Source: Odontocerum albicorne (taxonomy: Eukaryota > Arthropoda > Insecta > Trichoptera > Odontoceridae). From it: a DNA stretch of 64,000 nt. Below, piece after piece: positions 2,225 to 43,253 of the stretch. Made by a program: the position numbers and the translations under genes. The first letter of the stretch is position 1. The number at the start of each line of letters is the position of its first letter. The stretch spans positions 3,634,217 through 3,698,216 of the forward strand of contig OX463859.1 in assembly GCA_949825065.1 (NCBI GenBank), read 5' to 3'. Under the pieces are notes generated by a model. That model worked only from the letters and a program-made list of their open reading frames with translations. It ran no database searches and was not told the origin of the DNA.

Positions 2225-2570
2225 TTATGATTGACTTGTACTATTGTTGGTCATGTGGCATGGAATGTTATCTAATATCTTAGTGTTAGATATACGAGTG
2301 GTGTGTGAAACTTGAGGAAGCACTTGACGATAACTATTTTTGGAAGGTTTTATCTAAATGTATGATGTTAAATGAACGCTATATACTCGTACATACACTG
2401 CACTACGCGCATAGCCGAATGTGTTAGTACCACATATCGGAATATCTACAAAGGTTTCTTTGTAGTTACTCTTTCCTTAGTAAATTTTCTTTCTAAAAAA
2501 TGTTTCTCTGAATATATGCAGATACAGGAAAGTATCCTGTCTAATGGCTGCAGTTAATACTTCCTATCCG
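2225..2570 (+). repeat. Dispersed repeat, family I, copy 1
   Basis: This segment aligns by eye with 35150-35475 over most of its length: a TTGGTCATGTGGCATGGAAT-like start, TTAGTGTTAGA, TTTTTGGAA, a ...TATCGG block and a ...GGCTGCAG end. A shorter copy is at 51255-51400. There is no long open frame. It contains a TACTCGTA octamer at 2384-2391, in a segment six bases longer than the copy at 35150. Confidence 0.65.
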
Positions 2571-2868
2571 CACACTCAACCTGTGTGTTTTTATTTAGTT
2601 ATATTTTTTATCTACCAACAATCAAGTTGATCTACCCTTAAGAAGAATTTACTCTCGAAACGTCGCTATATATATTATCTTTGTATAATTGACAGTTCAA
2701 ATGCTTGTGACTTCTTAATCTCGTTTTTATGTTTGAATAGTATATGCTAACAAACACAAATTAGGACTTGGCCGGCCATCACAGTAGGCCAGCAATTTAA
2801 CAAACGTTAGTTAGTCATCAGTCAAATAATCAGACCATAACAAAAGGCGGTCTGAAACGGAACTCATT

Positions 2869-3084
2869 ATGTCGTTCAAAGCAGCCCCTTTCAGGCCTGG
2901 AGGAGGCGTCGAATCCAAAGCCAACAGTAGGAAGAGGGGAGGTAATCCCAGAAAACTGGCATTGTTAGTCCAACATCGTGGACGAACTGGCTTCGTTTCA
3001 ATTGAAATTGAAGGGTTGATTATTTTTCAGCCCTTTTTCACACTGACAACAGAAAAATGCGCGTTTCAAAAAAATATATTGTGA
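2869..3084 (+). other. Unrecognised 71-codon open frame
   Basis: The open frame starts MSFKAAPFRPGGGVESKA and is basic in its first half (Arg/Lys-rich). The first 45 or so codons use more G and C than the surroundings. A TTTTTCAG string at about 3023-3030 resembles a splice acceptor, after which the composition becomes AT-rich. I do not recognise the protein. It could be a fragment of a host exon, part of an unknown element, or chance. Confidence 0.2.
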
Positions 3085-3525
3085 TATTTCAAAAGGATCG
3101 GAAACAATGCATTGCTGGATACGAATATAGACTAAAAATATCATGCATGCAAAATCATTTTCTTTTTTCAACCAACAATTTTAAAAATATTTGGTAAATG
3201 TTACCACAATATTGTTCTTCTATTTGACGATCTTTATATCATAATTGACAGAGATCCTGGGATATTTTGAGTTTTACGTTTGACCTAGGGTGTTACGAAT
3301 TCGATTTCTGGTAGGGCCAAAAACAAACAAATTTACAAAACAGATGTTTTCTCATATAACTGGTTAAACGTCATCACGGTGATGCTGATCTCACCCAAAG
3401 GTGATAGAAAAGTATTAAAGGTAAAGTAAATTCAATATGTGAGTGAGTAATGAAAGATTGATTCTAAGTTTTATTGCAAATTGATGGGTTATGCTATTTT
3501 CAGCGTGTAACGATATAAAACAGAT

Positions 3526-3925
3526 ACAATGGGGCGCTTAAATATAATAAATACACTTAAACCAGACTATATCAAAATCTGCAAAAATGATAGTGCATAA
3601 CATTAATGAATGGAATTGAAACGTGGACATAGAAAAAGAAGAAAAGTGCTGAATAAATCCTGTATAAATGCGTGCACTCAGAAGAATACATGGGGTGACA
3701 ATGTATGATAGAATACAGAAGTAGGCGATTGGGGATGAATTTCACACTCATAATGTGAAAATCATTTTTTTCCAATCATAATGTGAAATTAAGGCTGTGT
3801 TAGTAAAATTAAAAATAGCGCTTTGAGACGGTTTGGGCACGTTAACGAATGAATGAAAAAATTCTAAAAAAACGAATAAACAGTACGAATGTGAAGAAAA
3901 CAGTGGCAAAAAAGACAAAAAAGGT
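3526..3925 (+). pseudogene. LINE family A RT C-terminal fragment
   Basis: Degenerate coding sequence of the post-RT region. It includes a GAAACGTGG segment (the ETW of the LMYG.ETWT motif), a segment reading like RRIHGVTMYDRI at about 3680-3715, and RRFGHVNE at about 3825. Several stops and a small duplication (CATAATGTGAAA twice, about 3750-3785) break the frame. It abuts the 66-bp array at 3926, whose unit codes a more upstream part of the same protein, so the order of parts is rearranged. Confidence 0.65.
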
Positions 3926-4453
3926 ATGATTAGATCGGAATTAGTAAACACTAACAAATATCTCGGCCATCATTTGAACCAGCACGGCAATATGATTAGA
4001 TCGGAATTAGTAAACACTAACAAATATCTCGGCCATCATTTGAACCAGCACGGCAATATGATTAGATCGGAATTAGTAAACACTAACAAATATCTCGGCC
4101 ATCATTTGAACCAACACGGCAATATGATTAGATCGGAATAAGTAAACACTAACAAATATCTTGGCCATCATTTGAACCAACACGGCAATATGATTAGATC
4201 GGAATTAGTAAACACTAACAAATATCTCGGCCATCATTTGAACCAACACGGCAATATGATTAGATCGGAATTAGTAAACACTAACAAATATCTCGGCCAT
4301 CATTTGAACCAGCACGGCAATATGATTAGATCGGAATTAGTAAACACTAACAAATATCTCGGCCATCATTTGAACCAGCACGGCAATATGATTAGATTGG
4401 AATTAGTAAACACTAACAAATATGTCGGCCATCATTTGAACCAACACGGCAAT
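3926..4453 (+). repeat. 66-bp tandem array, 8 units, from a LINE RT
   Basis: There are eight 66-bp units starting at 3926, 3992, 4058, 4124, 4190, 4256, 4322 and 4388. They are nearly identical, and each codes a 22-residue unit with the core NTNKYLGHHLNQHGN. This resembles the F.YLG..L...G segment just after the RT palm in family A LINEs. The frame stays open through all units except the fourth, where TTAGTA became TAAGTA. After the last unit the frame continues NNFEK, as expected of the parent protein. Since 66 is a multiple of three, expansion kept the frame. Confidence 0.9.
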
Positions 4454-6284
4454 AATTTCGAAAAACATTAGAATAGATATTTTTTTAACGTTTTCGGTTC
4501 TATTCATATTTCTTGAATCTTTTTAACTTAAATTTAAATTTTGGGTTCGAATTATAATTATTCGTGTTTAAAAACTTTTGAAATATTTCAAACGAGTTGA
4601 AGAGTTACGGAAACACCAAGGGTGCTATATAAATTATCTTTTTATATTATATTTTTAGTATTATTTTCAACATTTCAAGCATAAATTTAAATGAAAGTTC
4701 ATGAGGGAAAGACACTTTATAATTTAATCTTGATTTTTTTACCAGTTATATCTTTGAAGTAGAGAAACGGGAGGCACTTTTAAGATTTATTTCCGCAAAG
4801 CCATTAAAAAAGCTTTAAAATATATATCTTAACGCTCTCAAAACAGCTTAAATTTATAAATTAAAACCCTCTTGAATATGGAGGTCAAAGTTAAAATAAA
4901 AGAAAACAGCGATAATAAATGCTGAAGGTAAAGTTAAAGTAGGGATATATTCTAAAAAGCACTGTGCCTCGAGGCAACAGGCAACTGAGAAGCTGTGGTA
5001 ACTTTAACTAATATTAAAGATGATTAAAGTTACTTGTAAGTTTAGAACTGTTTTGTACTTGATTAAGTAGGTACTTGAGTTGTTTTATTTTTAAAACTGG
5101 ATTAACTTGCTTTTTATCACCTTGCCATATATGGGAGATTTTCTTTACATTTTTATACACGTATATCCGATTTGGCGATACAGATTTATTGAATAACGTG
5201 GCTTTTAGTAAACAAACCCCATGCCATGTTTTTTTTTATTAAACTTTATTACTATATACAGTATTTTATCAACCATTAAAAAATGTTACAAGAGTTATAA
5301 TCAAATTAGAATTTTGAAACAAAGTCAATGAAAAGAAAGATAATAAATACGAGTCATAAGGTCACCTCTAATATCTTTAAATGGTTGGATTTATTTTAAT
5401 TTCATTCTTTAGGCACCACTCTTGTATCTGTTGGTGGTTGCAGCCCAACAGATAGAATTCCGGACGGGTTCAATTCCAGACGGGTTAAATTCTGGACTGA
5501 TTTTACTGTTGGACTATTTTACATATGAATTAGCGTTTTTCTGTAACTTTCATTCGTATGTGGCGTATCATTAATTCTTAGACCCTGTCCAGATGAGGCG
5601 TTTTTTTAATCATCGGCATCGTCCGTCCCCTGATCAGTGGTACCCACCACCTGGTCAGTGGTATTCGCCACACGGCAGGTTATATCCGCCACATTATCGG
5701 TCTAAAGCGTTGAGATTCACCCCTTACCTCACCGATCCATCACGTTGTTGGTCATAAAAAGATTCTCGAAGTTATCATTTTAATTTTTGTGAATAAGTAT
5801 CATGATACACTTAGGGGTAGTTATATCGAGCAGGTATGAATTATTGTTAATAAAAAAATGATAATTGAACTTTTAAAAATAATATTTGATACGTGAAAAG
5901 AAAAATGTCACCACTCAGAGTCTTTTACATCATTATTTACCGCCTCTGATGTATTTCTTCTATGGGGGAAAATTAAATTACCCTTCGAAGAAAATTGAAG
6001 TTTTACGATCGAGAACCTAATTTAAAATATAGCTCCCAAATGAACTACTTTCGATATTATCATTTTGATAGAGTTTACGTATTAAAAAGTGTTTGTTCTC
6101 TAATAAAATAAGATTATAAAAGGTAGAAGACTGATAATTTAATTATTTACTTGAAAAATTATTTCAAACTTGAGAATATCATTCCGAATGTTACAGGTTT
6201 TTTTCAGTACTTCTGATTTTGTTAAATTAAGGCTTTTAAATTCTTTTGATTTTATCACGAATAATTTGAACAGTATACAAATAT
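4454..6284. other. Long stretch with no element recognised
   Basis: AT-rich sequence with no recognisable repeat or conserved protein. The only notable item is the short Pro/Tyr-rich open frame at 5593-5757, preceded at about 5450-5510 by a small imperfect duplication (GGACGGGTTCAATTCC / AGACGGGTTAAATTC). Confidence 0.5.
5593..5757 (+). other. Short Pro/Tyr/Trp-rich open frame (54 codons)
   Basis: The frame runs from ATG 5593 to TAA 5755-5757. Its centre holds a repeated pattern: QWYPPP, QWYSPH and RLYPPH, spaced eight or nine residues apart. The stretch is richer in G and C than its neighbours. Low-complexity repeats like this occur in structural or secreted insect proteins, but I see no signal peptide or splice context. 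It could be an exon, a captured fragment or chance. Confidence 0.3.
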
Positions 6285-7290
6285 GTTTAATTTGTTTAGA
6301 ATAATAATGTTTATACCACTTAACATTACAATATAACCCTACTGGTTAAAGGTTACCTCATTGTCGCGAGAGCACAAAAAAACTGAATTATATTTGAGTT
6401 TGCGCCGATATACCAAATGCATCTAACAGTTAAACATCGGAATTATGATTGTGGTTCGAGGAAGACTGGAGATATCTTTAGCAAGTACCGGTGAGACTTT
6501 GGACATATATAATATACATATTATATCGGACGTATGCGTCACACAAAACATATGATGTATTTGTTTTCGTTTGTTATTTGGTACCTTTTATGATATGATA
6601 TTTTGATGTTATTTGGTATTTTATATGTTTGTTGAAGTCCGTGCTGTGTCACGACCGTAACTGAAATATTTGTTATACGCAGCCATCGCGAGACAGTATC
6701 AAAAGTCGGTCGGCTCATGCATGCGAAAACTTGCGAGAATTGTGATATTTCGCAAGTCATAACGGCATGCACGGGCGAAAACGGGCACTTGCAATGAGCG
6801 ATTGGCCGCACACAAGGAGCGCCAAAATTAAAAAATATTTTCTCAGTTCACTTCAGCCTTTTACTTGCGACCATCTACTACCTGCTAAAGAGGAATCTCT
6901 TCACCCTGCTACTTTTCACCGCGAGCCGAAATCTCCGAGCATTGAGCAGCAGTTATCCATCTATTTCTACAGTCTTTGTACCGGTGCCGTACACATATGT
7001 TTACCAGATGTTCATTTCAATTCTTTGACTTTCGTATTTCCAGGGTCTTTTATCTGTCCGAATTATTTCTAAGTTGGCATCATCGATAGGAAATGTATAC
7101 TTTTCTCGGTGAAAATTGACAGTCATTTCAGAATAAATTAAAGGGTTCTTGTTTATGCTCTCTTGATGATGCAGGCTGAATATTGAAACCGGTAGGATTA
7201 TATCGTTACAATAAGTGCAAAAATAGTGTTTTACAAAACATTTAAGCCTCCATAGTGTTAACGCATTAACTATAAATAAAAATAAATTTA
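6285..7290. mobile_element. Foldback element, family K, with unusual internal cargo
   Basis: The left arm (about 6285-6400) carries ATAACCCTACTGGTTAAAGG and ...GAGAGCACAA. The right arm (about 7150-7290) carries TTGATGATG, GAAACCGGTAGGATTATA and ...GCATTAACTATAAATA. They are inverted copies of the arms seen closely paired at 13295-13495, 13770-14025 and 62445-62700. Here they are separated by about 750 bp that is GC-richer than the surroundings (for example 6640-6830) and unrelated to other repeats in the window. Open frames of 90 codons on the minus strand (6539-6811) and 101 codons on the plus strand (6767-7072) overlap, and I recognise neither. Confidence 0.5.
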
Positions 7291-7637
7291 GAGATTTTTA
7301 CAATATTTCATACGATTAAAGTTGAACCATTATCTCTGCTCTTTTTGCGTTAAATCACGGACCTGATACAGAATAACTATAAAATTGTGAGTTATAGTTT
7401 TTACGCGTGATTTGATATAAGATAAAAAATTTATAAACCACACCGAATCACGAAAAAATTGATTTTTCATATTATGTACAAAGTAATTTGTCCTTAATAT
7501 ATGACACATAAAAAAGGGTAATAGAGGGCATCGAAATAAAGACAAATGATTATGACATCAGTGTCTAATCTTAAATGAGTTATAATAAATACATGACATC
7601 TCGTCATTTGCCTGTTGTGGTTCTATTTCTTCTGTAT

Positions 7638-7832
7638 GGTTTTCGTGGCCTAATTAGTAAAACACTTGTCTCCAGACCTGGGGTTTGCGAGTCAGATTCC
7701 AGATGGTATACATTTTTTTAAGAAAAAAAAAAGTATTTATTTTTTGCTTAGAGATATATTAGATAGTTTTGGGTTGGAATGAAGAGACTGCCACATGGCA
7801 ATAAACCAACCGATTGTTCTATATACAATGGA
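7638..7832 (+). mobile_element. tRNA-derived SINE
   Basis: A box-like TGGCCTAATTAGTAA lies at about 7647, followed by ACACTTGTCTCC and a B-box-like GCGAGTCAGATTCC at about 7688, then an A/T-rich middle. The 3-prime part GACTGCCACATGGCAATAAA matches the 3-prime tail of LINE family D. No protein is encoded, as expected. Confidence 0.65.
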
Positions 7833-7916
7833 AGTATGATACGATACAATAATCTTCAACTTATCCTAATTTGTGGTACAGGAATTGAAGAGAGTAGCTA
7901 GGAGATCATATGTATT

Positions 7917-8552
7917 TATTTATTTAACACTTTTATTGAAAATACAATCTGGCAAAAGTATGGCCAGGCTGCAATATCTTCCAGCCAACCAGACAAAAGT
8001 AAATTAAGTAAGGTACGTGGTCGCATAAATCATTCAAATGACTATCCATCCCCACGAAATCCATAAACACATACTTGTACATGAGTATATGCCCGCGGAC
8101 CCCACAAAGACGGACAATCACTTGAACATTATTTTTCATATAAAGTGAGATATCATCAATCAAAAGAAAATTAAGGGATAGTGGAGAGGAAAGGAAAAGA
8201 AAAATAAGGAATATAACACTTTATTTTACTGACTAGAAATTAAGTGCGTTTTCAGTCGCTTCTTAAAGCATGCCAAGGACGGAACGAGTCTTATATTGGT
8301 TCGTAACTAATTCCAGAGTCTCACTGCATGGACAGTAAAGGACGACGAGGAGCGATGAACTGGAAAGGCTAATAGACAAATAAAGAAAGAGGAGCGATGA
8401 ACTGGAAAGGCTAATAGACAATATCTGTTTGAGCGTAGCGCTAATCCATGATTGGAAAGACGCTGAAAATTTTCGGTGAGATATGAGGGAGTGGCGGGAC
8501 AGTCAAGGATATTATACAATAGAGACAGTATGGGAATTGTCTTCAGTTTAAA
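7917..8552 (-). pseudogene. LINE family D 3-prime end (RT C-terminus and 3-prime UTR)
   Basis: The minus strand codes a C-terminal segment with LSNHGLALRSN, VHAVRLWN and LACFKKRLKTHL. This is the RLWN.LP...FK..L end typical of Jockey/CR1-like RT proteins. It is followed by a 3-prime UTR ending ...GTTAAATAAATAAATA at 7917. A 31-bp piece (GGAGCGATGAACTGG and on) is duplicated at 8349-8379 and 8390-8420. The copy is 5-prime truncated at about 8552 and has a stop at the NQL position. Other copies are at 14962-16145, 18125-18315, 28595-29700 and 35690-36203. Confidence 0.75.
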
Positions 8553-8555
8553 GAC

Positions 8556-8735: not shown

Positions 8736-8745
8736 GGGAGTACTC

Positions 8746-9206: not shown

Positions 9207-10284
9207 AAAGTGCCTTCGGGTTTAGAAATACTAGAGTGGACACGGAACTCGTTGTTTGTAATCACTCGTATTAGCAATACCATCCCGTACGTGAAAAGGC
9301 AACAACACTCGTATACGTCTAGCGCTTATGAGTATTGTTACCAGATAATCTCTTTTATAAAGTCACTTTGAGATTTAAATGATCCTGCGATCCTTTTTTC
9401 AATATTGAGTATAATACTCGTACGTATAAATTCTATAATACAAAAATTATTAATTAAATTGTATAACATTTTTTCATCATTTGTCAAATAACTTTGATCA
9501 AAGGATTGTAAAGAAAATTAGTTCGTCGTTTTGTTGGATACCAAACATTAAAACTTTATTAAATGAAACAGAAAATAAATATACCAAAATTTTGTCTTTG
9601 AAAATTGACAAAAAGATATAACTCAGTTAAAGTAATAACAAAAATATATATTTACCATTAATGTCCTTGTAGTAGTGATTCTCATTGTCAAAATTATTAT
9701 TTATTTCTTCAAATAATCTGAAAGCAAAAACAAAAAAGTTTAAATAATCAAGTTAATATTTGAAAATTTTCAAACAATTCCTTTAATCTATTTTGTTTAA
9801 TTTTAAAGTTATAAATAGTTAAAACACGGATTAAATTCTCTTAACTGTAAATTCGTTTGAGTTTGTTGTAAGCTTTTATGAATTGAGTCAAAAAAGCTTT
9901 TCTTAGAAGAATTTATAATCAAGCTAATTTTAACGCATATTATCTTATGTCAAGTAACAAAAACTGGTATTTAAGTCTAATAGAAAACGATTTATCAATA
10001 TTTGAGTTTCAGACGCATATATCATCACGTGATAACCCTATTGTGGTAGACAAAGAGGACACATCGTAAAATTTTCTTAAAGAAACATCCTCGTTTAGTC
10101 TTCTCCACATCCATACACCTTCAGATAAAATTCCATATAGGTAAACATTGATCATAACACGTTATATTTCTGACCAGGTTCAGCACTAGGGCGTTGATTG
10201 AGCCTCTGCTTGGCTCTAATCACTGAGTTAGGATTGAGGGACAGGCCAAACTTCGCTCAGTGAAAAACCTGTGGCGTGCTATTT
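9207..10284. other. Unannotated AT-rich stretch
   Basis: No coding signal. TACTCGTA is at 9415-9422. An ATTT microsatellite at 10281-10300 belongs to the next repeat. Confidence 0.5.
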
Positions 10285-10830
10285 ATTTATTTATTTATTA
10301 TTACACATGACAAGAAATATACGAGTACATAATTTGTGAAAAAACAACAGGTAATTTAATTTGAACATACCATTTTAATGGATCTGGGTTTGTTGTCTTT
10401 CATTTGTCATATTCCCAGTAAACTAGGCTTTTGCCTATATCTCACTGAGGATATTTATCATGAAAAAATAAATCGATACTTCTTTCCGATTTTTGATTAC
10501 ACAAAAACAAAACCCTGTTGCACGTTCTCATCAACCTGACAAATAGTGGCACTCAATTACAACTGGAAACATCATGCGAAATTAAACTCCTCACACATCA
10601 TCACTCCAGAAAGACCGAAAATATTCATCCCACTATATACCGCACACAATCATAAGAATAAAAATAAAAAAATATATAGAAACACAAAAACAACCAAATT
10701 TAAAAACAACAAGAAGAAACCCACACTCACGAGCCCACACAAAATATTTTCCACATGTCATTCATCCTGAAAGTCCAAGTACTCAAAATCCTGTCGCAAT
10801 AACAACCACGCTCCGATCGACTGTCTAAAT
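10285..10830 (-). repeat. Dispersed repeat, family G, copy 1 (probable LINE 3-prime end)
   Basis: Read on the minus strand it ends in GTGTAATAATAAATAAATAA, a TAAA-type tail typical of some LINEs. It holds CAGGCAAAAGCCTAGTTTAC, AAATCGATAC and a T-rich tract. Copies are at 14285-14815 (+), 21815-22045 (+) and 34605-35130 (-). This copy alone has CGAGTA inserted after ATATA at 10322-10327. The open frame at 10546-10770 is low-complexity and not a gene. Confidence 0.7.
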
Positions 10831-12850: not shown

Positions 12851-13294
12851 ATTTGTTGGATCAGAAATATGATATTTTTATGATGTTTCCTTTATTTCGA
12901 TCACATCATAAAAATGGCGAAGGATAACGTCAGGTCCCGCAGGAGTCTTGTCAACCGTCAGGTCATTAATGTTCTTTATCGTCGTGTGGAAGCAGTAAAG
13001 ACTTTTCCACTACGTTAAGTTCTATAATAAAAGGATAGTAAACGACAATTTGCTTGATTCACGATATCTGTTTATGATTTTATATTATACATAATATTGA
13101 TTGTTTTTCGTTAACAGTGTTTTCTTTCACAGAAGTACGAGTACATAGTCACTAATATAACTTCGCGAATTTTATATTTACGGCATTATTTAATTAGTTG
13201 TTGCTTACGTACAGTAAAACTGTTTTCCTGTTGGGATAGTTCGAGAGGCCAAAGTGTCAGATTTTCCTGAAGAAGATAGAATTTATATAATTTG

Positions 13295-14155: not shown

Positions 14156-14284
14156 TTTGAAGTCAGGCAAAGATGAATGGAAATAAATTTCACATTATAT
14201 GAGTGTCATACGAGTATGTGAATTTCATATAAGTCTTTATAAATAAAGTTTCATTTTAGATAGTTTAAATGTAGTATTTTTTTC

Positions 14285-16470: not shown

Positions 16471-16474
16471 GTTA

Positions 16475-17600: not shown

Positions 17601-17739
17601 AAGAATATACTCGTATATTGATGAAAGTAAGTGGTTTCAATAAAAGGAATTTATGAAATATCTGATTTGATGCATTTGTTAACGATTTTTTTTAGGATTA
17701 GGAAATGGTTATATGGAATTTAATTCAAGAAAATATCTT

Positions 17740-19479: not shown

Positions 19480-19865
19480 TCCATAAAAACCAACAATTGT
19501 AGCTCCCAGGGCTAAAGAGAGTTAGTCCGACCTACCTTTCCGTTATAAGCATACATATAAACATACTCGTAGGCTTCCGAAGTATAGTATGTTGCCTGAC
19601 TAGTCCACCTGCAGATTTAGCAGGAAAGACCAAGGTCTGAGTGAATGTGATGAAATGCAAGACGCCAGAACGAGTGGACATGCACATACATGTGTTAAAT
19701 ACGAGTAAATAGTATTCAAAAAATAGTTGTTAAAACTGTTATCTAGTTATAAGTTAGTATACATGTTAAGATTTAAAAAAATAAAAATTATATGTAGGCA
19801 CTTAAAATAAGGTTAGTTCACAGTTATAATATATAAATTTGATTAGTTCTTAAGTCATAAAAATA
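19480..19865. other. Unannotated stretch
   Basis: No protein or repeat recognised. TACTCGTA at 19564-19571 and TACGAGTA at 19700-19707. Confidence 0.45.
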
Positions 19866-22995: not shown

Positions 22996-23002
22996 ATTGA
23001 TA

Positions 23003-24706
23003 ATTTTGAAGTAATATTTCTATTTTTTACAGTCCAATTTTTACAGTCCAGTTGAAAATTTTGAAGTAATATTTCTATTTTTTTACTGTCCAATTTTTAC
23101 AGTCCAGTTGAAAATTTTGAAGTAATATTTCTATTTATTACAGTCCAATTTTTACAGTCCAGTTGAAAATTTTGAAGTATTGTAATATTTCTATTTATTA
23201 GTCCAATTTTTACAGTCCAGTTGAAAATTTTGAAGTAATATTTCTATTTTTTTTACTGTCCAATTTTCACAGTCCAGTTGAAAATTTTGAAGTAATATTT
23301 TTATTTTTTTTACTGTCCAATTTTCACAGTCCAGTTGAAAATTCTGAAGTTATATTTCTATTTTTTAGAGTCCAATTATTACAGTCCAGTTGAAAATTAT
23401 GAAGTAATATTTCTATTTATTACAGTACAATTTTTGCAGTCCAGTTGAAAATTTTGAAGAAATATTTCTATTTTTTACAGTCCAATTTTTCTAGCCCAGT
23501 TGAAAATTTTAAAGTAATATTTCTATTTTTTTACTGTCAAATTTTTACAGTCCAGTTAAACATTTTGAAGTAATATTTTTATATATAACAGTCTAATTTT
23601 TCCAGTCCAGTTGACAATTTTGTAGTAATATTTCTATTTATTACAGTCCAATTTTTCCAGCCCAGTTGAAAAATTTGAAGTAATACTTCTATTTTTTACA
23701 GTCCAATTTTTACAGTCCAGTTGAAAATTTTGAAGTAATATTTCTATTTTTTTACTGTCCAATTTTTACAGTCCAGTTGAAAATTTTGAAGTAATATTTC
23801 TATTTATTACAGTCCAATTTTTACAGTCCAGTTGAAAATTTTGAAGTATTGTAATATTTCTATTTATTAGTCCAATTTTTACAGTCCAGTTGAAAATTTT
23901 GAAGTAATATTTCTATTTTTTTTACTGTCCAATTTTCACAGTCCAGTTGAAAATTCTGAAGTTATATTTCTATTTTTTAGAGTCCAATTATTACAGTCCA
24001 GTTGAAAATTATGAAGTAATATTTCTATTTATTACAGTACAATTTTTGCAGTCCAGTTGAAAATTTTGAAGAAATATTTCTATTTTTTACAGTCCAATTT
24101 TTCTAGCCCAGTTGAAAATTTTAAAGTAATATTTCTATTTTTTTACTGTCCAATTTTTACAGTCCAGTTAAACATTTTGAAGTAATATTTCTATATATTA
24201 CAGCCTAATTTTTCCAGTCCAGTTGACAATTTTGTAGTAATATTTCTATTTATTACAGTCCAATTTTTCCAGCCCAGTTGAAAATTTTGTAGTAATATTT
24301 CTATTCATAACAGTCCAATTTTTACAGTCCAGTTAAAAATTTTAATGTAATATTTCTATTTTTTTACTGTCCAATTTTTACAGTCCAGTTGAAGATTTTG
24401 AAGTAATATTTCTATTTATTACAGTCCAATTTTTGCAGTCCAGTTGAAAATTTTGAAGTAATATTTCTATTTTTTTACTGTCCAATTTTTACAGTCGAGT
24501 TAAACACTTTGAAGTAATATTTCTATTTATTACAGTACAATTTTTACAGTCCAGTTGAAAATTTTGATGTAATATTTCTATTTTTTTACTGTCCAATTTT
24601 TACAGTCCAGTTAAACATTTTGAAGTAATATTTCTATTTTTTACTGCCCAATTTTTCCAGTCCAGTTGACAATTTTGAAATAATATTTCCATTTTTTACA
24701 GTCCAA
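23003..24706. repeat. About 57-bp satellite array, about 30 units, higher-order
   Basis: The unit contains CAGTCCAGTTGAAAATTTTG, AAGTAATATTTCTATTT and TTACAGTCCAATTTTTA. Period is about 57 bp with single-base and T-run variation. Diagnostic variants recur in the same order: GAAGTATTGTAATATTTC at 23174 and 23843 (669 bp apart), and CTAGCCCAG at 23491 and 24103 (612 bp apart). So a block of about 12 units was duplicated and one unit of 57 bp was then lost in the second block. Confidence 0.9.
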
Positions 24707-31875: not shown

Positions 31876-32271
31876 CCAAACGCCATCTATCCTAGAAATG
31901 CGAAACAACTTTGCGGACAACCCAATAATATTATGTGTACTCGATTTTTTTTAACTATCTAACTGTATAATTTCTACGTTGCCTTTTACGTAAAAGTTAA
32001 AGGTCAACCCACAGTATTGTAACCGTGATGTCCCCTTGGTATTTTGACCATTATTTTTGACATTTCAACATCAAAGAGAAGGAAATACGGATTACGTTGC
32101 CGAGCAAGGCGTTAAAGATGAATTCAAGATAAGAGTTCAAAGTTAAAAATAAATAAAACGGTTTATTGGTAAGCAAAAGTTATAGTAATCGCAGTAAAAA
32201 GAAACATGGTTAAGTATACGAAATTATAAAGTTTTAAATAGAAGTAAGCGATATCCATGGCAATTAAATTA

Positions 32272-33227
32272 CTAGGCGTATCCAGAAAGTAAGAGTACTG
32301 AGGCTCTCACGACCGGATAAATTTTATTTTTGACATGTTGGCTACACTTCCGTGTAGCCTGACCCTTCCCCTCCGCAACGAGACCGGTTCGAGATCAGTA
32401 CGTTGAGAAGTTTCGACGCAACAACACGTTTCGTGAAAAATGTCAATCCAATCTCCCGCCAAGTGCGAAATAAATAATGCCGGGCAAGAGTTTTTGAGGC
32501 GCTGCAAACTCCATGGAGATGAATTTCTCCGCTCCATCGTTACTGGGGATGAAACTTGGGCTGCACACTACACGCCTGAAACCAAAAGGCAATCTCAACA
32601 GTGGCGTCACACCTCTTCACCCTCCCCCAAAAAGTTCAAAACCACAATTTCAGCCAAGAAAATCATGACATCCGTGTTTTGGGACTGTCAAGGCATAATT
32701 TTAATTGAATATATGCCTCAAGGGGAGACGAAAAACTCTGCAAGATACTGTGAGACCCTAAAAAAATTGCGGAGGGCGATTCAGAACAAGAGGAGAGGCA
32801 TGCTGACAAAGGGAGTCTGCCTGCTGCACGACAATGCCAGACCACACACGGCCAACGCCACAAAGGAACTGCTCGCCTCGTTTAAATGGGATGTCCTGAA
32901 CCATCCCGCGCATTCCCCTGACCTAGCACCTTCAGATTACTATCTCTTTACCTTCCTGAAGCTGCACATGGGTGGAAAAAGGTTTTCAACCGACGAGGAG
33001 GTAAAGGAGGAGGTGAAGAAGTGGACGGAGGGGTTGGCGGGAAACTACTTCGAGGAAGGCATCAAAAAGTTGATACCCCGCTTCACCACCTGCATTGAGA
33101 GGAATGAATGACTATGTCGAAAAATAGCTTACATATGTACTACGGTAACCACGTAATTTTTTTGTTTAAATAAAAAAAATTGTAACCTACAAAAAATTCA
33201 GTACATTTACTTTCTGGATATGCCTCG
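32272..33227 (+). mobile_element. mariner element with internal deletion
   Basis: Ends: TA (32270-32271) then CTAGGCGTATCCAGAAAGTA at the left; at the right, inverted, CGAGGCATATCCAGAAAGTA followed by TA (33228-33229). The TA duplication and matching 5-prime and 3-prime inverted repeats define a 956-bp Tc1/mariner element. Intact mariners are about 1.3 kb. The missing length lies in the N-terminal half of the transposase. The right terminus CGAG is relevant to the TACGAGTA octamers seen across the window. Confidence 0.9.
32440..33111 (+). pseudogene. mariner transposase, catalytic core without DNA-binding domain
   Basis: A 223-codon open frame. Transposases of this family cut and paste the element and carry an N-terminal helix-turn-helix that binds the inverted repeats. 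Here the first 11 residues (MSIQSPAKCEI) look like a mariner N-terminus but run straight into NNAGQEFLRR, which belongs just before the catalytic core. About 110 residues are therefore missing, in frame. The core is complete: GDETW with Asp37, HDNARPH with Asp131, and SPDLAPSDYYLF with Asp166, so the spacing of the second and third Asp is D34D. No stop or frameshift is seen. It should not bind its own ends, so I treat it as non-functional for transposition. Confidence 0.85.
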
Positions 33228-33414
33228 TATATAAACGAAAACAGTCTTATCTCATTTTGCGGTGCTTTGTATATACGGTGCATTAACAATTTAAATTAAT
33301 TAATTCATATCGTCATAAAGTTAAAATATAGAGCCGCCAACTAGGACAAGAAATAAACAATTGTCCTTATGATGGACTGATTCTAGACTCTGATAAGAAG
33401 TAGCTCGCTAAAAG

Positions 33415-34460: not shown

Positions 34461-34604
34461 AAAAGTGTACTTTGTATTTATTATGTTAATGGATGTACTC
34501 GTATCTGTCGAATGATGTCTGAAAGATGTCCCTTCGGAGAAGATAAAAGCTTTGAGGTCGATTCGGTCTCAATCTTATAAAGTAATTGTTCCGAATATTT
34601 TATT

Positions 34605-35149: not shown

Positions 35150-35475
35150 GTGACATAACTTTTACCATTGCTGGCTCTGTGGTGTAGAATGGCGTGCCGC
35201 TTAGTGTTAGAGATGTGGGTTACTTATGCAGCTTTAAGAGTTACTTGAATACAACCCTTTTTGGAAAATCTTATCAAAATATATGATTATATAAGAACAC
35301 TTCACACATGTATTACATAACAACTTAAACTTAATGTGTAACTGCTATATATCGGAAAATTTAATAAGGTTTCCTTTTACTTTACAGCGATTTTCTTACC
35401 AAAGAAGTTTATGCTGAAAAGATGCAGATGATTGGCCTTATCTAAAGGCTGCAGCATTACCTCCCTATTAAAATA
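35150..35475 (+). repeat. Dispersed repeat, family I, copy 2
   Basis: TTACCATTGCTGGCTCTGTG, CTTAGTGTTAGAGATG, TTTTTGGAAAATCTTATC, ATATATCGGAAAATT and AAAGGCTGCAG correspond in order to 2225-2570. Confidence 0.65.
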
Positions 35476-35489
35476 AATTATTATAATAC

Positions 35490-35680: not shown

Positions 35681-35689
35681 AATTCACAT

Positions 35690-36203: not shown

Positions 36204-36369
36204 CTATCCCATCCTTATACTCAACTAATATTTATATTAAGTTATTCATATTTTTAATCAGTCAATAAAAGTAGGTTTGATTCGCGAGTCGGAGCACCCT
36301 TAAAAAGAGTTTGTTCTTCTCCAAAGGGTGTTTTATAAATACGAGTAGTATTTCTTTAAGGGTTAAATT

Positions 36370-36480
36370 CATACTCAGCGCTTTTCATTTAATTCAATAT
36401 TCTATCATTTATTGCCACCTTATGTATTCTTCAGCATGTTTAAGGCTGTTTTCACTCTTTTTCCATATCCACATAAGGTG
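36370..36480 (-). pseudogene. LINE family A fragment
   Basis: On the minus strand, TGTGGATATGGAAAAAGAG and CTGAAGAATACATAAGGTGG match the ETWTWK...LRIIHG region of family A. Confidence 0.45.
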
Positions 36481-37189
36481 GTTCTTAGATAATTATCAAC
36501 AAAATGTAAAAGTCTGAAAAAAATATTTCATTCTTATAAAATATATTTCCATTAAGTGCAAAAATAATTGAAATATACTACCTCGCATATTATTATCTGT
36601 CAGGACCAACATTTCGACGTTTAATAATGCCTGATTAAGTTTTCATTGTCCCGCCCTGACCTCACGATTCCGTCTGAGTTATTCCGAGCCTCGTTATCCT
36701 TCATAAATTCGGGATAAATTATTGTTGTACTGTCCCGGATCCTTCAGGAGTGTGGGGAAAAGATAATGTTGGGGACTATTCCTAGGTCTATCATATACAT
36801 GACTATCTACAGATGTGGGAGAAACTCGACATATGCGGGATGAACTATTTCGTAAGAAGTGTACTCGTATTTAGCGACAATGAACCTTTGGTAATTGTAA
36901 AAAATTGTAATTTATTTTTAATTTATATACATATCGTCATCCTTTGTCATTTGTGGAGTAGGCAGAAAGAACAGGTCTCTTATGTTTTCTATCCAATCAC
37001 ACAACTTTCTCCTCCTCCAAATTCATACGTCTCGTCATGATCAATATTCTGTTATCTTCTCACTTGATCTTCTTGCAAAATCTGATCTATTTAGTTCAGC
37101 CACGTTAATCACGGTCTACCGCTTCCATGTACATTGAAATTTTGATTTGTATACTCGCTTAGTCATTCATTATCTCCAAACCAACTTAA
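36481..37189. other. Unannotated stretch
   Basis: No recognised protein. TACTCGTA at 36862-36869. The 75-codon frame at 36813-37040 has no family motif. Confidence 0.4.
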
Positions 37190-37243
37190 TCCTTCTTTCC
37201 CTGTGATGTGAAACTAGTACACATTGCTTCTAAAAACTATAAT
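37190..37243 (+). repeat. Family E end fragment
   Basis: CCCTGTGATGTGAAACTAGT and ACACATTGCTTCTAAAAAC match the left end of family E; the rest of the element is absent. Confidence 0.6.
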
Positions 37244-37362
37244 GCTACGATATAATGCTACTTTAGCGTGTGTCCTAGTAGGACGTGCTGATGATGTTGA
37301 TGTTGACATCTCTGTATTCGCTTTGGTCGAATTCTGTGTTACTTTTCGTTCGGGGTCATCAA

Positions 37363-37821
37363 TTTAGCGGAATGCTTAATTTGATACGTCGTGATGATTT
37401 TGATTTGTTTTGTATTTAAAATAAAATACGTCGATTCAGGAATGCGGGAAGTGAGAGTGAATAATAATAAATAGTAAACAGCAATGAATGGTCAAGTGAA
37501 TAATAACAAGTGCCTTTATTCATCGATAAGTAGGTATATATACAATTTCAGAACGGGACGCGTGACTGCGTCCGCGGTATATCTCGATCTCACTCCTGCG
37601 CGTGCTGAGGTGGTCGCAAGCGCTGCGGATACTACCGTGGGTAGGATATTTATTGTCGAAACGGCGAGACGGCGTGATATGTTCTCTTTCTACCTTGGAA
37701 TGCGATGTAAATATTATTTGCGTGTAAACAGTGTTGACGTTTCTGGTATGTGACAATTGTACATATCCAGAGGTTGATTCATCGGTCGTTGACCCTGCAT
37801 GTTGACAATATTTAGGGACGT
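37363..37821 (-). mobile_element. LTR-like repeat, second family, copy 3
   Basis: Inverted copy, very close to 8746-9206: TTTAGCGGAATGCTTAATTT at the left, TATATATACAA box complement at about 37534, and AATATTTAGGGACG at the right. The 89-codon plus and 78-codon minus frames inside are by-products shared with copy 1. Confidence 0.65.
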
Positions 37822-37833
37822 TGGTACCCTACA

Positions 37834-37957
37834 CTACGATATCCAGCCAAGTTAGACCTCCAAGACAAAATATAATGCTACGATATCCATCCACGTTAGA
37901 ATTACAGGGCAAAATATAATGCTACGATATCCAGCCATGTTAGACCTCCAGGGCATC
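37834..37957. repeat. 44-bp tandem array, about 2.7 units
   Basis: CTACGATATCCAGCC recurs at 37834, 37878 and 37922, with GTTAGACCTCCA and GACAAAATATAATG between. A related CTACGATATAATGCTAC is at about 37250. Confidence 0.85.
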
Positions 37958-38194
37958 AATGAGACTTATTAGAGAACAGGCCCACCTGTTCTAGGATAAA
38001 AGATTTTAAATACACAACGTGATATCAACCTTACTTTTTGATGACCTGTAGCACCACTGGAGATATGAGTAAGATAAGCAGGTTAAACCTCACTCTGTCA
38101 AAAAATTGAAGGTATGAATTTGGTTGAATTAACCAGGAACAAATGAAAAAGTTAACGTTCTTTTCCAAATGTTGAGTATAACGTTATTTAAGCA

Positions 38195-38500
38195 AACTAA
38201 TGACTCCATTCTTGAAAAACTGAGTCATTGTCAAATTGTGGACGATTCCTCCAATTCTTTGAGCACATTGCTCGTGGCGAAAAAGAAAGTTTGGAGAGGC
38301 TCCTGGTCACCCATAAGAGGAATGCCCAATGCATCTCAATCGCAATGCGTCAGACTGATCAAGTGAAAGACACCACTGGAGTACCTTGAATAACTGCCTT
38401 TCGATCCACGGAGCACAGGAATCGATAGTAGTCGTCAAGAGCTATCACGGAAGTCACAGTCAATCATGAGTAACGTGACATCATGATGATAACGCAACTG
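38195..38500 (+). pseudogene. LINE family H RT C-terminal fragment
   Basis: Codes TNDSILEKLSHCQ (TN.SIL.EL), then in another frame FFEHIARGEKESLERLLVTH and RQTDQVKDTTGVP (RWTDQ....TG). Matches the H fragments at 50165-50405 and 63690-63910. At least two frame changes. Confidence 0.6.
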
Positions 38501-39789
38501 AATTATCATCATCTGAAGTGTTAAATAAATATTTTTCAGGAATAGCTAGTAAATTGTACTTAAAACACAATAATACTTCAGTACGAAGGTGTCTTGTGTC
38601 GAAGAGAAAGAGGTTATATGACACAATTCACTCCGCAAACTTGCCAATACTTAGATTCTCGACTAAATTTTCTTTTCGTTCGCTTTTTTTCACAGACTGT
38701 AAACGATCTACCCAGGTTCACTATTTTCCAACATACAATGTACACTTAACACACGGGTCACCAGTTCCAGCGATGATTGAAAATCTTTTTTCCATCATAT
38801 AAATTATTTATTGCGGGTAAAAAAGAAATGGACGATGCCAACATGTTGAATATCATGGGCGTAAGATAATATTGTTGTCTGCCCTATTAACCTAACCTTC
38901 GAGTTTAGATCCACTCAAATACCACCAGTTCGTCATAGCATGTATTGCATAAACATGTATTTCTGTACTTAAAGAGGCAATAATAACATACTTGCATATA
39001 CCCAGCGCATCAGCATTGTAACCAGATGAAACTAATTTACTAGACTCAGACACCTTTTTTTATTTTCTTCAAGTATCAGTGAAAATCAAACCCGAAACCT
39101 TCAATGAATCATTTTCTTCTCGAAAGAGGTCTTGTGCAATATGATCTCTACAGGTGCAATAGAAAAACTGTGAAACGTTGACGACTGTTGATAGACTAAA
39201 GTTCTGACTTCAGTGAAACAGCGTAAAAAGATAAAATGTTACAGCATATAATTCCTAACGACGGATCTGTGTCTACCTCAGCAAAACTTAACATCTCAGC
39301 GTGTTGTAAAAATGGTTTAAAACTTCTTCCGTTTATCGTAAATTCTTTGTATGCTTATAATAAAATAAAAAAGAGATTTTTTTCACCCAGAAAACTTTTA
39401 TGCTCCGAACACAAAGAGAACACGTCTGCGGATTTTTAGAAAGAGATGTGAGAATAGTATAATTTGTTTCCACTCGAAGTGATATGAAATATAGTTTTTT
39501 ACACGTTTTTTTTTAGAGAAACAATAAAAGCTTTAAAAAAAACACCAAAATAGGTTTGTGTAGGTTGATAAATGGAAAACTGAGAATTCCTAAATTATTG
39601 GAAAAGGTATTTTCTTTTCTTTTAGACGTAATATACATTTTGGCTTCATTGGAAAGCGGAGGGAAAGCTGATGATGAAAGTATTGTGGGCACCTCAAGAG
39701 ATGTCAATATGTTTCAAAGCATTAATACTCAGCACAACTGGAAGCAAATAGTAGTAGAAAAAACCGAATAATGTAGAACTGTTGTTCGT
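38501..39789. other. Unannotated stretch
   Basis: Several frames of 64-94 codons (for example 38518-38802) show no motif I recognise. No repeat seen. Confidence 0.4.
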
Positions 39790-40363
39790 TATCAGATATC
39801 TATTGGATAAAAAAGACGCAGACAAGTTGCGTGCACTGAAGATCTATACCATATATGCAACAAGATATGCTTATCACAAATTGGCTTACGTAGTTATCCC
39901 CGATGGTACCAACGTCAAGGACCCCTGTAGCTACCACAGTATAACTCCATGTATTCTCAATGTGTTTACTCTTCCAAAATAAAGTGTACTCACTAGCTGT
40001 TTCCACAATTTACCCCTCTCCAACAAAGCGAGTTTCCGACAATGCAATAATGTCAATATTGTATCTCGCCAGTTCATTCGCAACAAGAGCGGTTCTGCGC
40101 TCAGGTCGGTCACTTGCTTCGCGGTCCATCAGTGTCTTCACATTCCATATTGCAAGCCTAAGTCCTCGAATATTTGATCCATTACTAAATTTGTTTTTGC
40201 AACCACTAGTGTGGGTGATCCCATGGGCGTGGTCACCCAGGCAGAGAAAAAAGAGGGCAGACAATTGAACCCTTGATCGACCGATTAGCTCATGCGTATC
40301 GTATTTTTTTTCAGCGTTCGTATTTCTACAGTGTAATTTTTCAAGTCTTCGATTAAGTCTCAT
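39790..40363 (-). pseudogene. APE-type endonuclease domain of a LINE
   Basis: The minus strand codes GLRLAIWNVKTLMD, a DRPERRTALVANELARYNID stretch, then IIALSETRFVGEG. This is the WNV.TL ... LA.EL.RY.ID..ALSETR signature of the N-terminal AP-like endonuclease that nicks target DNA in non-LTR elements. After a stop at about 40008 the frame continues IVETASEYTLFWKSK, also as expected (YT.FW.GK). The HG.G region that should follow is decayed. It may belong to family B, C or H; no RT follows it. Confidence 0.75.
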
Positions 40364-40434
40364 CTTCGTATCACCGAAAAATTCAATTTATTTTCCAAAA
40401 CTAATTTGATAATATTGTATTTAATACTTCTTCT

Positions 40435-40860
40435 TCTCCCTGGCTCCATCCCAACTCACTGTCTACGAAGTCTGTTGGGGTCAGCTCTCCTCGTCCTCAG
40501 GTTGTATGCTCTTCTGTCCCGGACTACGTCCCTCAGGCCGTGCGTCTTTTTGCACCACCCACGAATTCTTTGGTCTTCCTCTGGTTGTTATTCGAGGAAG
40601 ATCCATGGAGACTGCCTGGTTCACAATGTGATAGGATGCTCTGCGGCCAACGTGCCCACACCATCTCAATCACCTCTCCTCCATCTTACTGTTGATGTCT
40701 GTAACACCTAGGCTTCCACGAATGCGTGAACTTTTTATTTTGTCTCTTAGGGACACACCAGCTGACCATCTAGTTGCCTGGAGTAAGAGCTATACATCGT
40801 CCAGCATTCAGAGCCATAGAAGAGTGCGGGTCTGATAATAGTTTGGTCATTGTAACATAT
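40435..40860 (-). pseudogene. LINE family C RT C-terminal fragment
   Basis: Minus strand: TIIRPALFYGSECWT-like codons at about 40830, then MRWCGHVGRRASYHIV, NQAVSMDLPRITTRGRPKNS and WVVQKDARPEG. This is the R.GRPK.RW..Q tail of an insect LINE. The same region occurs at 60684-60950 (+). The 101-codon plus-strand frame at 40406-40711 is a shadow. Confidence 0.7.
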
Positions 40861-41542
40861 TTAATACTTCAATTTATTTAAAAAAAAAAAACAATTTAAA
40901 TATACGTGTAAATTATGTATTTAATTCAAAACTTTATTTTCCAATACATTAGATTTTGTGCTACACAAATCAAGACTTCAACTTAAGTCCTACAAGAGAA
41001 ACTCGGTTTTACTCTCTATTCCAGAAACGTGGGAATATGAAAAATGTCTTGAAGAATTCTGAGAGCTTGTTGTCTCCAGGGAGGTGAAAATAAACACCAA
41101 GTTCTGGAGACGTGACTGCGGTCATAGCCTCATTCCTTTACTGTAGAGGGGCAGAGCACGACGTGTGGAATAAAAACTCAGTACACATCCTTTTGACAAG
41201 ATCATTCTTGAAATTGCTCGACGCTCCGACTTTTTTCGTGAACACATTCCAGGTGACTGATTGGTATTTGATATGACGCATTGAAAGAAAGTTTCGAGGT
41301 AATTTTTTTTAATTGTTTACAATTTTGTTTAGCAAGTTTTAATACTATTGACGTTCAACCTGCAGAAATAAATCTTTTACTAGCATTCAAGAATATACGA
41401 GTATTACTTTGGATTGTTCAAAAAGTTATTTCGAATTTTAGGTTGAATTTAAACGGAAAATTGCACCAAATTCTTGTAGATGGTGATTTTTGATAGTTTG
41501 GTATCTCAGCAATGTTTTGTTTTATCGACATACATACACGTA
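40861..41542. other. Unannotated stretch
   Basis: AT-rich at both ends; no recognised protein. TACGAGTA at 41396-41403. Confidence 0.4.
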
Positions 41543-41767
41543 CAGTACCTGGCGGTAAGTAATACATATCAGGCTTAAGAAAGAGACTGTCGGGCATTAT
41601 CGACTAACTTCGGCTTTATAGAGCATCGTCTTTGTCATTCGTACACGTATTCCGTCGCGATTTATTAGCGCATCGTTCGACAGAAACGACGCTCTACAAA
41701 GCCGAAGCTATTATGGCCGACAGTCTCTTTCTTAAGCCCGATGTGTATTACTTACCGCCGGATACTT
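41543..41767. mobile_element. Palindromic MITE, family F, copy 2
   Basis: Starts CAGTACCTGGCGGTAAGTAA, ends ...TTACCGCCGGATACTT. Arms are longer than in copies 1 and 3 because of an extra CGACTAACTTCGGCTTTA-type block beside the centre, also present in copy 4. Confidence 0.8.
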
Positions 41768-42144
41768 TTCATACGTGTTTCTTGACGAATGCGTTGATTT
41801 AATCATCATCAGTGGCAATCGACTTTCCAGAGCGGACGCTAACTTCGAATGTTATATTACTATTACGGATTTTTTATAACCATATTTGACACACACGGTT
41901 GCTTACAGCATCATTGCCATACATTTTATATATACTTAATATTTGGTTTGTGTCACATAACTTAAGCAATTTAAATAAATAACAGGCGAAAAAAACATTT
42001 AAGCAATTAAGGAAAATAATTGCTCTAAACTAATAACTTTCATAATAATATTTACTTAGCATATATGGAATGACGTTAGCAAAGAAAATAAATTCCTAAC
42101 AACACATATCCGAGAAATATGAGTTGACTTTCCAGTTAGTATAT
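41768..42144. other. Unannotated AT-rich stretch
   Basis: Nothing recognised. Confidence 0.4.
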
Positions 42145-42350
42145 TTTTACGTTTTTTATATACAGTATAACCTGTCCGATTTATTACCACGTGGAAATCT
42201 TTTTCAACCAACCGAAATGTGTTAAATAAGCCTTAAGTAAACACCAGTATTTAAATAGGACACATTTTTAAAACATTTGAATACCAACAAGGGTCTGTAA
42301 TTTCCGGGCTGGAAGAAAGGCGTTTTACCAACTCGAATGCCAAAGTTGTG
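42145..42350 (-). mobile_element. tRNA-derived SINE
   Basis: Minus strand: TTCGAGTTGGTAAAACGCCT (A box region), TTCTTCCAGCCCGG, a decayed B box, then TTCGGTTGGTTGAAAAAGAT and TTCCACGTGGTAATAAAT, the LINE D tail. Confidence 0.6.
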
Positions 42351-42597
42351 CAAAATAAAAACCTTTTCCAACTTGCTAGTACTGCCAATTTGTTCCAGCC
42401 AGCTACAAAAAAATATATAAAATATTGGTAGAAAATTAAGTAAGAACCATTTTGAAAAATAATTGACCATCTACAAAAATCGCACTTTTGTCTTGGCCTG
42501 GCTTCATATTAATAACCTTTCGGTTTATATCCTGCTTATTTCTTCGCGCTACAATTTTGATGTTCATCTTCACTCAGTCGGTTGATTTATGTCATAA

Positions 42598-43253
42598 TCC
42601 TTCCTGTCCTGTGATGTGTAACTAGTACACATTGCTTCTAAAAACTTTAATATTTCTATAAATATATTAAATACTGGGTTCAGATTTTAGATATTCCTCC
42701 GTAACACATTTACGCATTGAATGAAAAAAATAATATTAATAATAATTAGCACTTATCAGCCACATCAGATATATTTTGTGAAAATCGGGAATAAATTCAC
42801 CAATACAATCAAACGTGTGCCGCTGTGTGACGTAGGTATATTAATTCTAAAAAAACACTATGGGTGATGTATATTCATTCTAAAAATCCGTATGGGTGAG
42901 GAAGCGACGCTATGCACGTCTCACTCTCACTCTACTACGGTATATGGGAACGCAAATAATATAATCTCAGTTTGGTCGCTTCTCTCGTTTAGTAGCCAGC
43001 CGGCTTTCGTTCGAGGTGGTCGCTTCACCCGTTTTGTGAGCGTCGTCCGATATTTTTTTTTTCATGTTTTCAGTAATTAAATTTTAATTAATATCCCTTT
43101 TGACTTAAAATTTAATTAATTTAAGCGATTGGATATGAATATTCTTATTTTTCAAATTTTAAATCGCCCATTTTTACACATGTACGAGTATTGATATGTA
43201 TTGAATACACATTACCGGAACGGGCAGATTTTTTTAGCACAGGAAGGGAAAGT
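42598..43253 (+). mobile_element. TIR-bounded repeat, family E, copy 2
   Basis: Same ends and block order as 25335-25917. A local duplication at about 42835-42898 (GTATATTAATTCTAAAAAA / TGTATATTCATTCTAAAAA) makes it longer. TACGAGTA at 43183-43190 is absent from the other copies. Confidence 0.7.

What the first reader, a model, noticed from the sequence alone, without database searches (positions are those of the whole stretch)
2384..43190. Over-frequent octamer TACGAGTA / TACTCGTA that looks like a mariner excision footprint
By eye I count 13 exact copies: 2384, 9415, 10320, 13136, 14209, 17608, 19564, 19700, 34496, 36340, 36862, 41396 and 43183, plus one-base variants (for example 57533). 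At about two-thirds AT a rough expectation is two or three. Where another copy of the host repeat exists, the octamer adds bases. In family G, 10310-10330 has CGAGTA after ATATA, absent from the other three copies. In family E, 57533-57540 has six extra bases relative to 25540 and 42800. In family I, the segment around 2384 is six bases longer than the copy at 35290. The result is TA-CGAG-TA, the form of a Tc1/mariner footprint (TA, a few terminal bases, TA). The right end of the mariner at 32272-33227 reads CGAG next to TA. The case at 43183 is less clean (net four bases).
Basis: partly seen in the sequence, partly recalled or inferred. Interest (0 to 1): 0.8.

Follow-up and report, generated by a model that had tools for sequence, protein, structure and literature searches.

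The report
Genome-wide mariner excision scars, TA-CGAG-TA
A short eight-letter word scattered through this animal genome is most likely the scar left when mariner jumping genes cut themselves out, and the scars far outnumber the mariner ends of the matching kind that remain.

Summary
In detail: 13 exact TACGAGTA/TACTCGTA at the stated coordinates, 1.5 expected. Genome-wide there are 381,502 against 30,151 for the reversed word, and in a 204-kb sample it is the most enriched octamer.

The footprint reading is well supported. In repeats the word is six extra bases at a TA that sister copies lack. Its flanks form a split palindrome: AYRTACGAGTAYRT occurs 57,711 times against 296 in the control. 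The three-base version is near background, 1,478 against 1,190.

Corrections: the mariner at 32270-33229 is probably not the main source; its left end reads CTAG, which predicts TACTAGTA, and that is rare (756 sites, control 272). Mariner families with CGAGGG at both ends fit better; their ends share the flank preference (18 of 44 ends; scars 47 of 120 half-sites). Minos, whose recalled footprint is the same word, shows no end enrichment.

Excess octamers outnumber CGAGGG ends roughly 22-27 to 1. Unusual: that ratio, and a four-base scar where two to three is the stated norm. Source and four-base cut are inferred, not shown biochemically.

The parts
2384..2391 (-). TACGAGTA octamer
   Evidence: paralog gap ambiguous
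9415..9422 (-). TACGAGTA octamer
10320..10327 (+). TACGAGTA octamer, footprint shown by paralogs (6 extra bases at TA; 7 of 10 dispersed paralog alignments clean)
13136..13143 (+). TACGAGTA octamer
14209..14216 (+). TACGAGTA octamer
17608..17615 (-). TACGAGTA octamer
19564..19571 (-). TACGAGTA octamer
19700..19707 (+). TACGAGTA octamer
34496..34503 (-). TACGAGTA octamer
36340..36347 (+). TACGAGTA octamer
36862..36869 (-). TACGAGTA octamer
41396..41403 (+). TACGAGTA octamer
43183..43190 (+). TACGAGTA octamer; paralog alignments messy (1 clean 6, 2 net 6, 5 other, of 8)
57533..57540 (+). CACGAGTA, one-base variant; all seven crossing paralog alignments lack the insert (six with a 6-base gap, one with 7)
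8072..8079 (-). TACAAGTA on the minus strand (TACTTGTA on plus), CpG-decayed octamer, 6 extra bases against 7 of 10 crossing paralog alignments
32270..33229 (+). truncated DD34D mariner with flanking TA; left end CTAGG, right end CGAGG; probably not the main source of the scars
   Evidence: DD34D spacing counted by eye in the translation

Best explanation
The octamer is the repaired excision site of Tc1/mariner-type transposons whose two ends both begin CGAG, most likely several related DD34D mariner families with CGAGGG ends. The element inserts at the TA of a palindromic site (AYRTAYRT) and duplicates the TA (supported by flanks). On excision the 5' strand is cut four bases inside each end, leaving 3' overhangs CGAG on both flanks (inferred). 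The two overhangs can pair with C-G and G-C at the outside and two mismatches inside; filling, ligation and one-directional repair give TA-CGAG-TA or, on the other strand, TA-CTCG-TA, which are the same word (inferred; the reasoning is the one I recall for Minos). The scar keeps TA sites, so it can be hit again (iterated scars seen). Scars persist and drift, while the elements themselves move on or decay.
For: Genome-wide 381,502 vs 30,151 control; top octamer in 204 kb. Six-base insertion at TA against paralogs: 5 of 9 octamers with at least one clean case vs 20 of 605 other TANNNNTA; clean in at least half of the paralogs, 3 of 9 vs 3 of 605, and two of those three controls are TACAAGTA/TACTTGTA, the CpG-decayed octamer; 57533 and 8072. 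Flanks: AYR in 47 of 120 half-sites vs 10.1% for 2,115 other TANNNNTA sites and 9.5% for 4,546 single TA, p about 4e-17; genome-wide AYRTACGAGTAYRT 57,711 vs 296, i.e. 15.1% of octamers against 1.0% of control octamers. Element ends: TACGAGGG 25,124 vs 11,981, with 16 convergent pairs 0.4-1.4 kb apart among the 100 places listed, 13 of the 16 with both ends in one family; AYRTACGAGGG 6,114 vs 514; classified F1-F4 ends 18 of 44 AYR against 2 of 24 for unclassified TACGAGGG, the same rate as the scars. Only the four-base form is common: AYRTACGATAYRT 1,478 vs 1,190. Mixed resolution TACTAGTA is rare: 756 sites vs 272. Iterated TACGAGTACGAGTA 935 vs 62, with runs of three or more units among the 100 places listed.
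Against: No locus was found where one copy still holds a CGAGGG mariner at the exact site of a scar in its sister copy (not searched genome-wide). Known mariners and Tc1 are cut two to three bases inside (PMC2170065; PMC7827188), so four is unexpected. The scar-to-end ratio is high, and the four full-length-sized copies I read (L031-L034) are all interrupted, so no active source is shown. Of the nine octamers with dispersed paralogs, two are the same repeat sharing the word and one is shared but for one base, inside a mariner-like repeat; three of the five clean cases (L010:3596, L027:490, L027:1711) rest on paralogs of about 69-74% identity. F4 ends have the flank in only 2 of 10. The sum of the 24 one-mismatch neighbours equals expectation (163 vs about 162, summed by hand), less decay than a very old set would show. 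The genome control is the reversed word, not a k-mer model; the order-2 model on the 254 kb gives a like figure, 6.1 per 254 kb. A sizeable part of the iterated scars listed lies in tandem arrays.
Confidence: 0.85

Rival explanations
1. The scars come from a Minos-like Tc1 element (recalled TIR start CGAGCCCC, recalled footprint ACGAGT inside TA), not from mariners.
For: Minos leaves a six-base footprint (PMC10992017 citing Pavlopoulos 2007, passage seen), and its recalled letters are the same word. Tc1-type transposases are common here: 150 scored matches of 1,568 first-look candidates for PF01498.
Against: TACGAGCCCC 266 vs 274 in the control; no TACGAGCC in 254 kb. Of three Tc1-type loci read, the only one with a resolvable inverted repeat begins CAGT/TAGT.
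Confidence: 0.08
2. The octamer is a functional motif (protein-binding site) kept by selection.
For: One-mismatch neighbours are not in excess in sum, as selection would give.
Against: It appears as six added bases at TA inside repeats and its flanks are an integration-type palindrome, neither expected of a binding site; changed forms that still show the insertion exist (57533, 8072).
Confidence: 0.02
3. The excess is one or a few repeats or satellites that happen to contain the word.
For: 24 of 84 octamers in the sample fall as near-duplicate contexts; arrays in L010, L018 and L021 and near the start of C1 carry one per unit.
Against: 60 distinct contexts remain in 254 kb, with no shared sequence beyond the three-base preference that I could see.
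Confidence: 0.03
4. A variant of the best explanation, not exclusive of it: the scar is an excision scar, but CGAG arises from a three-base overhang with one-base gap filling on each side, or another end-joining route, rather than from a four-base stagger.
For: Pairing two CGA overhangs offset by one base and filling would also give CGAG (inference); mariners are stated to be nicked three bases inside (PMC7827188 passage).
Against: That pairing has no matched bases, whereas CGAG overhangs pair at both outer positions (inference); flush three-base repair products are near background.
Confidence: 0.2

Closest known systems
Tc1/mariner excision footprints (Sleeping Beauty, Mos1, Tc1/Tc3)
   Same: Terminal transposon bases left between two copies of the TA duplication after end joining.
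   Different: Four bases, and present in the hundreds of thousands; two to three bases inside is the stated norm (PMC2170065 passage; PMC7827188 passage).
Minos (Drosophila hydei, Tc1 family)
   Same: Six-base footprint (PMC10992017 passage); letters and heteroduplex-repair model recalled, not read.
   Different: No Minos-type ends enriched in this genome.
DD34D mariners, Mos1/SETMAR relatives
   Same: Window transposase matches Mos1 at E 6e-37, DD34D spacing by eye, TA duplication; CGAGGG inverted ends up to about 1.3 kb apart.
   Different: The scars imply a four-base stagger rather than the three stated for mariner.

Membership tests
Tc1/mariner excision footprint | Extra bases lie between two TA copies relative to an unoccupied site | tested here: met
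   5 of 9 octamers with dispersed paralogs have a clean 6-base gap in at least one; control 20 of 605; 57533 in 7 of 7 (one with 7 bases), 8072 in 7 of 10
Tc1/mariner excision footprint | Flanks follow the integration-site preference of the element | tested here: met
   57,711 vs 296; scars 47 of 120 half-sites, element ends 18 of 44
Tc1/mariner excision footprint | Extra bases equal the element's terminal bases | tested here: met
   CGAGGG-ended mariners F1-F4
Tc1/mariner excision footprint | Same site seen occupied in one copy and scarred in another | not tested
   no occupied/scarred pair was sought genome-wide
Mos1-type mariner footprint | Three terminal bases left | tested here: not met
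   AYRTACGATAYRT 1,478 vs 1,190; TACGATA 25 vs 35 expected, AYR 1 of 46 half-sites
Minos | Ends beginning CGAGCCCC (recalled) present as source | tested here: not met
   266 vs 274 control
DD34D mariner as source | Transposase with DD34D spacing between CGAGGG inverted ends | tested here: met
   L034, by eye, in an interrupted frame; L032 has lost the last D; L033's second D lies beyond a frame break; L031 shows no transposase frame of 90 aa
DD34D mariner as source | Active transposase that excises leaving CGAG | not testable with these tools
   the four longer copies read are interrupted

The most novel reading that the evidence does not exclude
In this lineage DD34D mariners with CGAGGG ends cut four bases inside their ends, as Minos does, and their germline excisions are repaired by end joining so consistently that about a quarter of a million distinct scars have accumulated, making a transposon footprint the most over-represented octamer of a 1.29-Gb genome and a countable record of past transposition.
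Probability: 0.55. Interest if true: 0.75.

Novelty: new variant of a known kind. Interest (0 to 1): 0.62.

Why it matters
As far as I know, footprints are mostly studied one at a time in transgenes. Here they number in the hundreds of thousands, carry the integration preference of the source on both flanks, and are almost all of one form. That makes past cut-and-paste activity countable without surviving copies, allows repair outcomes (direction of mismatch repair, repeat hits, decay) to be measured at scale, and gives a clear biochemical prediction: a four-base stagger in DD34D mariners. It also explains a source of short indels between repeat copies that would otherwise look random.

Tried and rejected
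Minos as source: rejected on end counts. Window mariner at 32270 as main source: disfavoured because its left end is CTAG and TACTAGTA with integration flanks has only 756 sites against 272; the CTAT left end of its copy in L016 was not tested this way. Three-base and two-base scars of CGAG elements: TACGATA 25 vs 35 and TACGTA 62 vs 52 expected. Satellite explanation: 60 of 84 octamers remain after dropping near-duplicates. Selection: see rivals. An unbiased indel census of the sample had little power: of 61 six-base insertions those in TA form were TACTGATA (2), TACGAGTA (1) and TACAAGTA (1). Dating by decay: the 12 inner one-mismatch neighbours have AYR at 32 of 172 half-sites, between background and scar, so some are probably decayed scars, but I could not fix an age; AYRTACAAGTAYRT and TACGAGCTCGTA were asked and never answered, and the family search PF01359 neither. 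Papers: TACGAGTA as a string is in 301 papers of the held library, 20 listed, none on transposons by title; the listings of searches (titles and starts of abstracts; 12, 35 and 44 show only part of their hits) showed no genome-wide count of such scars. That is the extent of my not-in-print statement. Passages seen did not give footprint letters for Minos or mariner beyond Sleeping Beauty's CAG.
Full report
Observation. TACGAGTA occurs 13 times in the window on either strand at exactly the listed places; 100 dinucleotide shuffles give 1.47 on average and none reaches 13. Within the window 24 other octamers rank higher, the first ones from a tandem array at 22997-24706. In the window plus 14 arbitrary 10-kb stretches of the same genome TACGAGTA is the most enriched octamer of all (73 vs 5.0, z 28.9); the next TANNNNTA word is TAATAATA at z 12.8. 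In the 1.287-Gb assembly there are 381,502 copies against 30,151 of the reversed word. In 254 kb the figure is 85 against 6.1. One octamer at the edge of L020 was not usable; of the other 84, 60 remain after dropping near-duplicate contexts in the same stretch. The 254 kb include the window, which was chosen for this finding; without it the count is 72 in 190 kb.

Insertion at TA. Of 88 octamers in the sequence held, nine lie in repeats with dispersed copies in hand. Five of the nine show a clean six-base gap in at least one copy, against 20 of 605 other TANNNNTA sites with copies; clean in at least half of the copies, three of nine against three of 605, two of those three being the CpG-decayed words TACAAGTA and TACTTGTA. 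Best case: 10320, where 7 of 10 alignments read ATATAC-ACAATTT without the six bases. Three of the five (L010:3596, L027:490, L027:1711) rest on copies of about 69-74% identity, and 43183 is mostly unclean. The other four octamers: two are the same repeat sharing the word (L012, L019), one is shared but for one base within a mariner-like repeat (L024), one has ten extra bases (L016:9594). At 57533 the word is CACGAGTA; all seven crossing paralog alignments lack the insert, six with a six-base gap (one shifted by a base) and one with seven. At 8072 the word is TACTTGTA, a CpG transition of TACTCGTA, extra against 7 of 10 crossing alignments.

Flanks. In the 60 distinct octamers the three bases outside each TA tend to A, Y, R reading inwards: C appears once in 60 at -1 and never at +2. 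Full AYR occurs in 47 of 120 half-sites, against 10.1% for 2,115 other TANNNNTA sites and 9.5% for 4,546 single TA. The pattern AYRTACGAGTAYRT occurs 57,711 times genome-wide, its reversal 296: 15.1% of octamers have both half-sites, against 1.0% of control octamers. A palindromic site AYRTAYRT has been split by CGAGTA, as insertion at TA followed by imperfect removal would do.

Source. By eye, the TACGAG extensions in the 254 kb that look like transposon ends read TACGAGG. TACGAGGG occurs 25,124 times against 11,981; among the first 100 places 16 pairs face each other 0.4-1.4 kb apart. Reading 68 of the 100 listed places (60 short pieces and 8 ends of four longer loci) gives four families, F1 CGAGGGTCATCCAGAAA, F2 CGAGGGYGGTCCGATAAG, F3 CGAGGGTRGTCCCARAAG, F4 CGAGGGTTGCTACTTAAG, with 44 ends, and 24 unclassified (classes by at most 8 mismatches in 26 bases). 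Of the 16 pairs, 13 have both ends in one family, two are unclassified and one (L031) has unlike ends. AYR flank: F1 8 of 20, F2 7 of 11, F3 1 of 3, F4 2 of 10, together 18 of 44; unclassified 2 of 24. Genome-wide AYRTACGAGGG is 6,114 against 514. The scar and these mariner ends therefore share end letters and target preference. L034 carries an interrupted DD34D transposase; L033 is interrupted between the second and third D, L032 has lost the last D, L031 shows none (by eye). The window's own mariner (32270-33229; nearest solved relatives Mos1 and SETMAR; the best species-named proteins are from a psyllid and an aphid, 81% identical over 79-85% of the query) has CTAG at the left and CGAG at the right. 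Its excision should give TACTAGTA often, but AYRTACTAGTAYRT has 756 sites against 272 (a palindrome, listed once per strand). Minos ends are at background.

Mechanism. If the 5' strand is cut four bases inside, both flanks carry the overhang CGAG. The two overhangs pair C-G and G-C at the edges with two mismatches in the middle. Repair in one direction yields CGAG or CTCG; independent repair would yield CTAG or CGCG, which are rare (TACTAGTA; TACGCGTA 1 vs 2.1 expected in 254 kb). A three-base stagger would give TACGATA; with integration flanks that word is 1,478 against 1,190, about forty times fewer than the octamer. Offset pairing of three-base overhangs with one-base filling could also give CGAG and is not excluded. 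Re-use of the TA sites is suggested by TACGAGTACGAGTA, 935 against 62; part lies in tandem arrays (for example C1:63327109-63327538 and C2:670141-670550) and part forms runs of three or more units; six-base slippage could contribute. Shown: enrichment, insertion at TA, flank preference, matching ends. Inferred: the stagger, the repair route, and that these families rather than a lost one are the source.

Scale. The excess of octamers is about 351,000; scaled by 60/84 for near-duplicates this suggests about 250,000 distinct sites. CGAGGG ends number about 13,000 by excess over control or about 16,000 by the classified share 44 of 68, so octamers outnumber these ends about 22-27 to 1; ends of other CGAG-type families, such as CGAGGC, are not in this count. 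The one-mismatch neighbours are not in excess overall (163 vs about 162, summed), yet two of the three clearest insertion cases in the window carry one change, and TACAAGTA has a raised AYR rate (8 of 26), so the age is uncertain.

Known or new. Excision footprints of Tc1/mariner elements are well known, two to three bases being the stated norm (PMC2170065 and PMC7827188, passages) and six bases in all for Minos (PMC10992017, passage). In the listings of searches I saw no paper that reports such scars as a genome's leading octamer or a four-base scar for DD34D mariners. I therefore call it a new variant of a known kind.

Noticed in passing
L010:6389-7338, L018:6452-7226, L021:4543-5674, L014:1-1010: Tandem arrays carry the octamer more often than its density predicts: 4 of 62 arrays hold it (3 in the unit consensus), 0.8 expected. 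In L018 the left array edge and the right end of self-similarity each lie about 12 bases from an octamer, hinting that excision repair may seed tandem duplication.
   Followed up: partly
L016:1812-1825: A window-type mariner (left end CTATGCG) sits exactly on the second TA of a TACGAGTA.
   Followed up: no
L010:5505-6008: TACGAGACTCGTA and near forms: both four-base ends around one extra A, as if both overhangs had been filled and joined.
   Followed up: no
204-254 kb sample: TACATA is also raised (317 vs 226) with AYR flank in 113 of 660 half-sites, perhaps two-base scars of CA-ended Tc1 elements.
   Followed up: no
window 22997-24706: 55-base tandem array with TTTTTACAGTCCAGTTGAAAA, source of the window's most enriched octamers.
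   Followed up: no
window 44205-48076: Retrotransposon with reverse transcriptase, RNase H and integrase domains in one frame and a DUF7041 frame upstream, minus strand.
   Followed up: no
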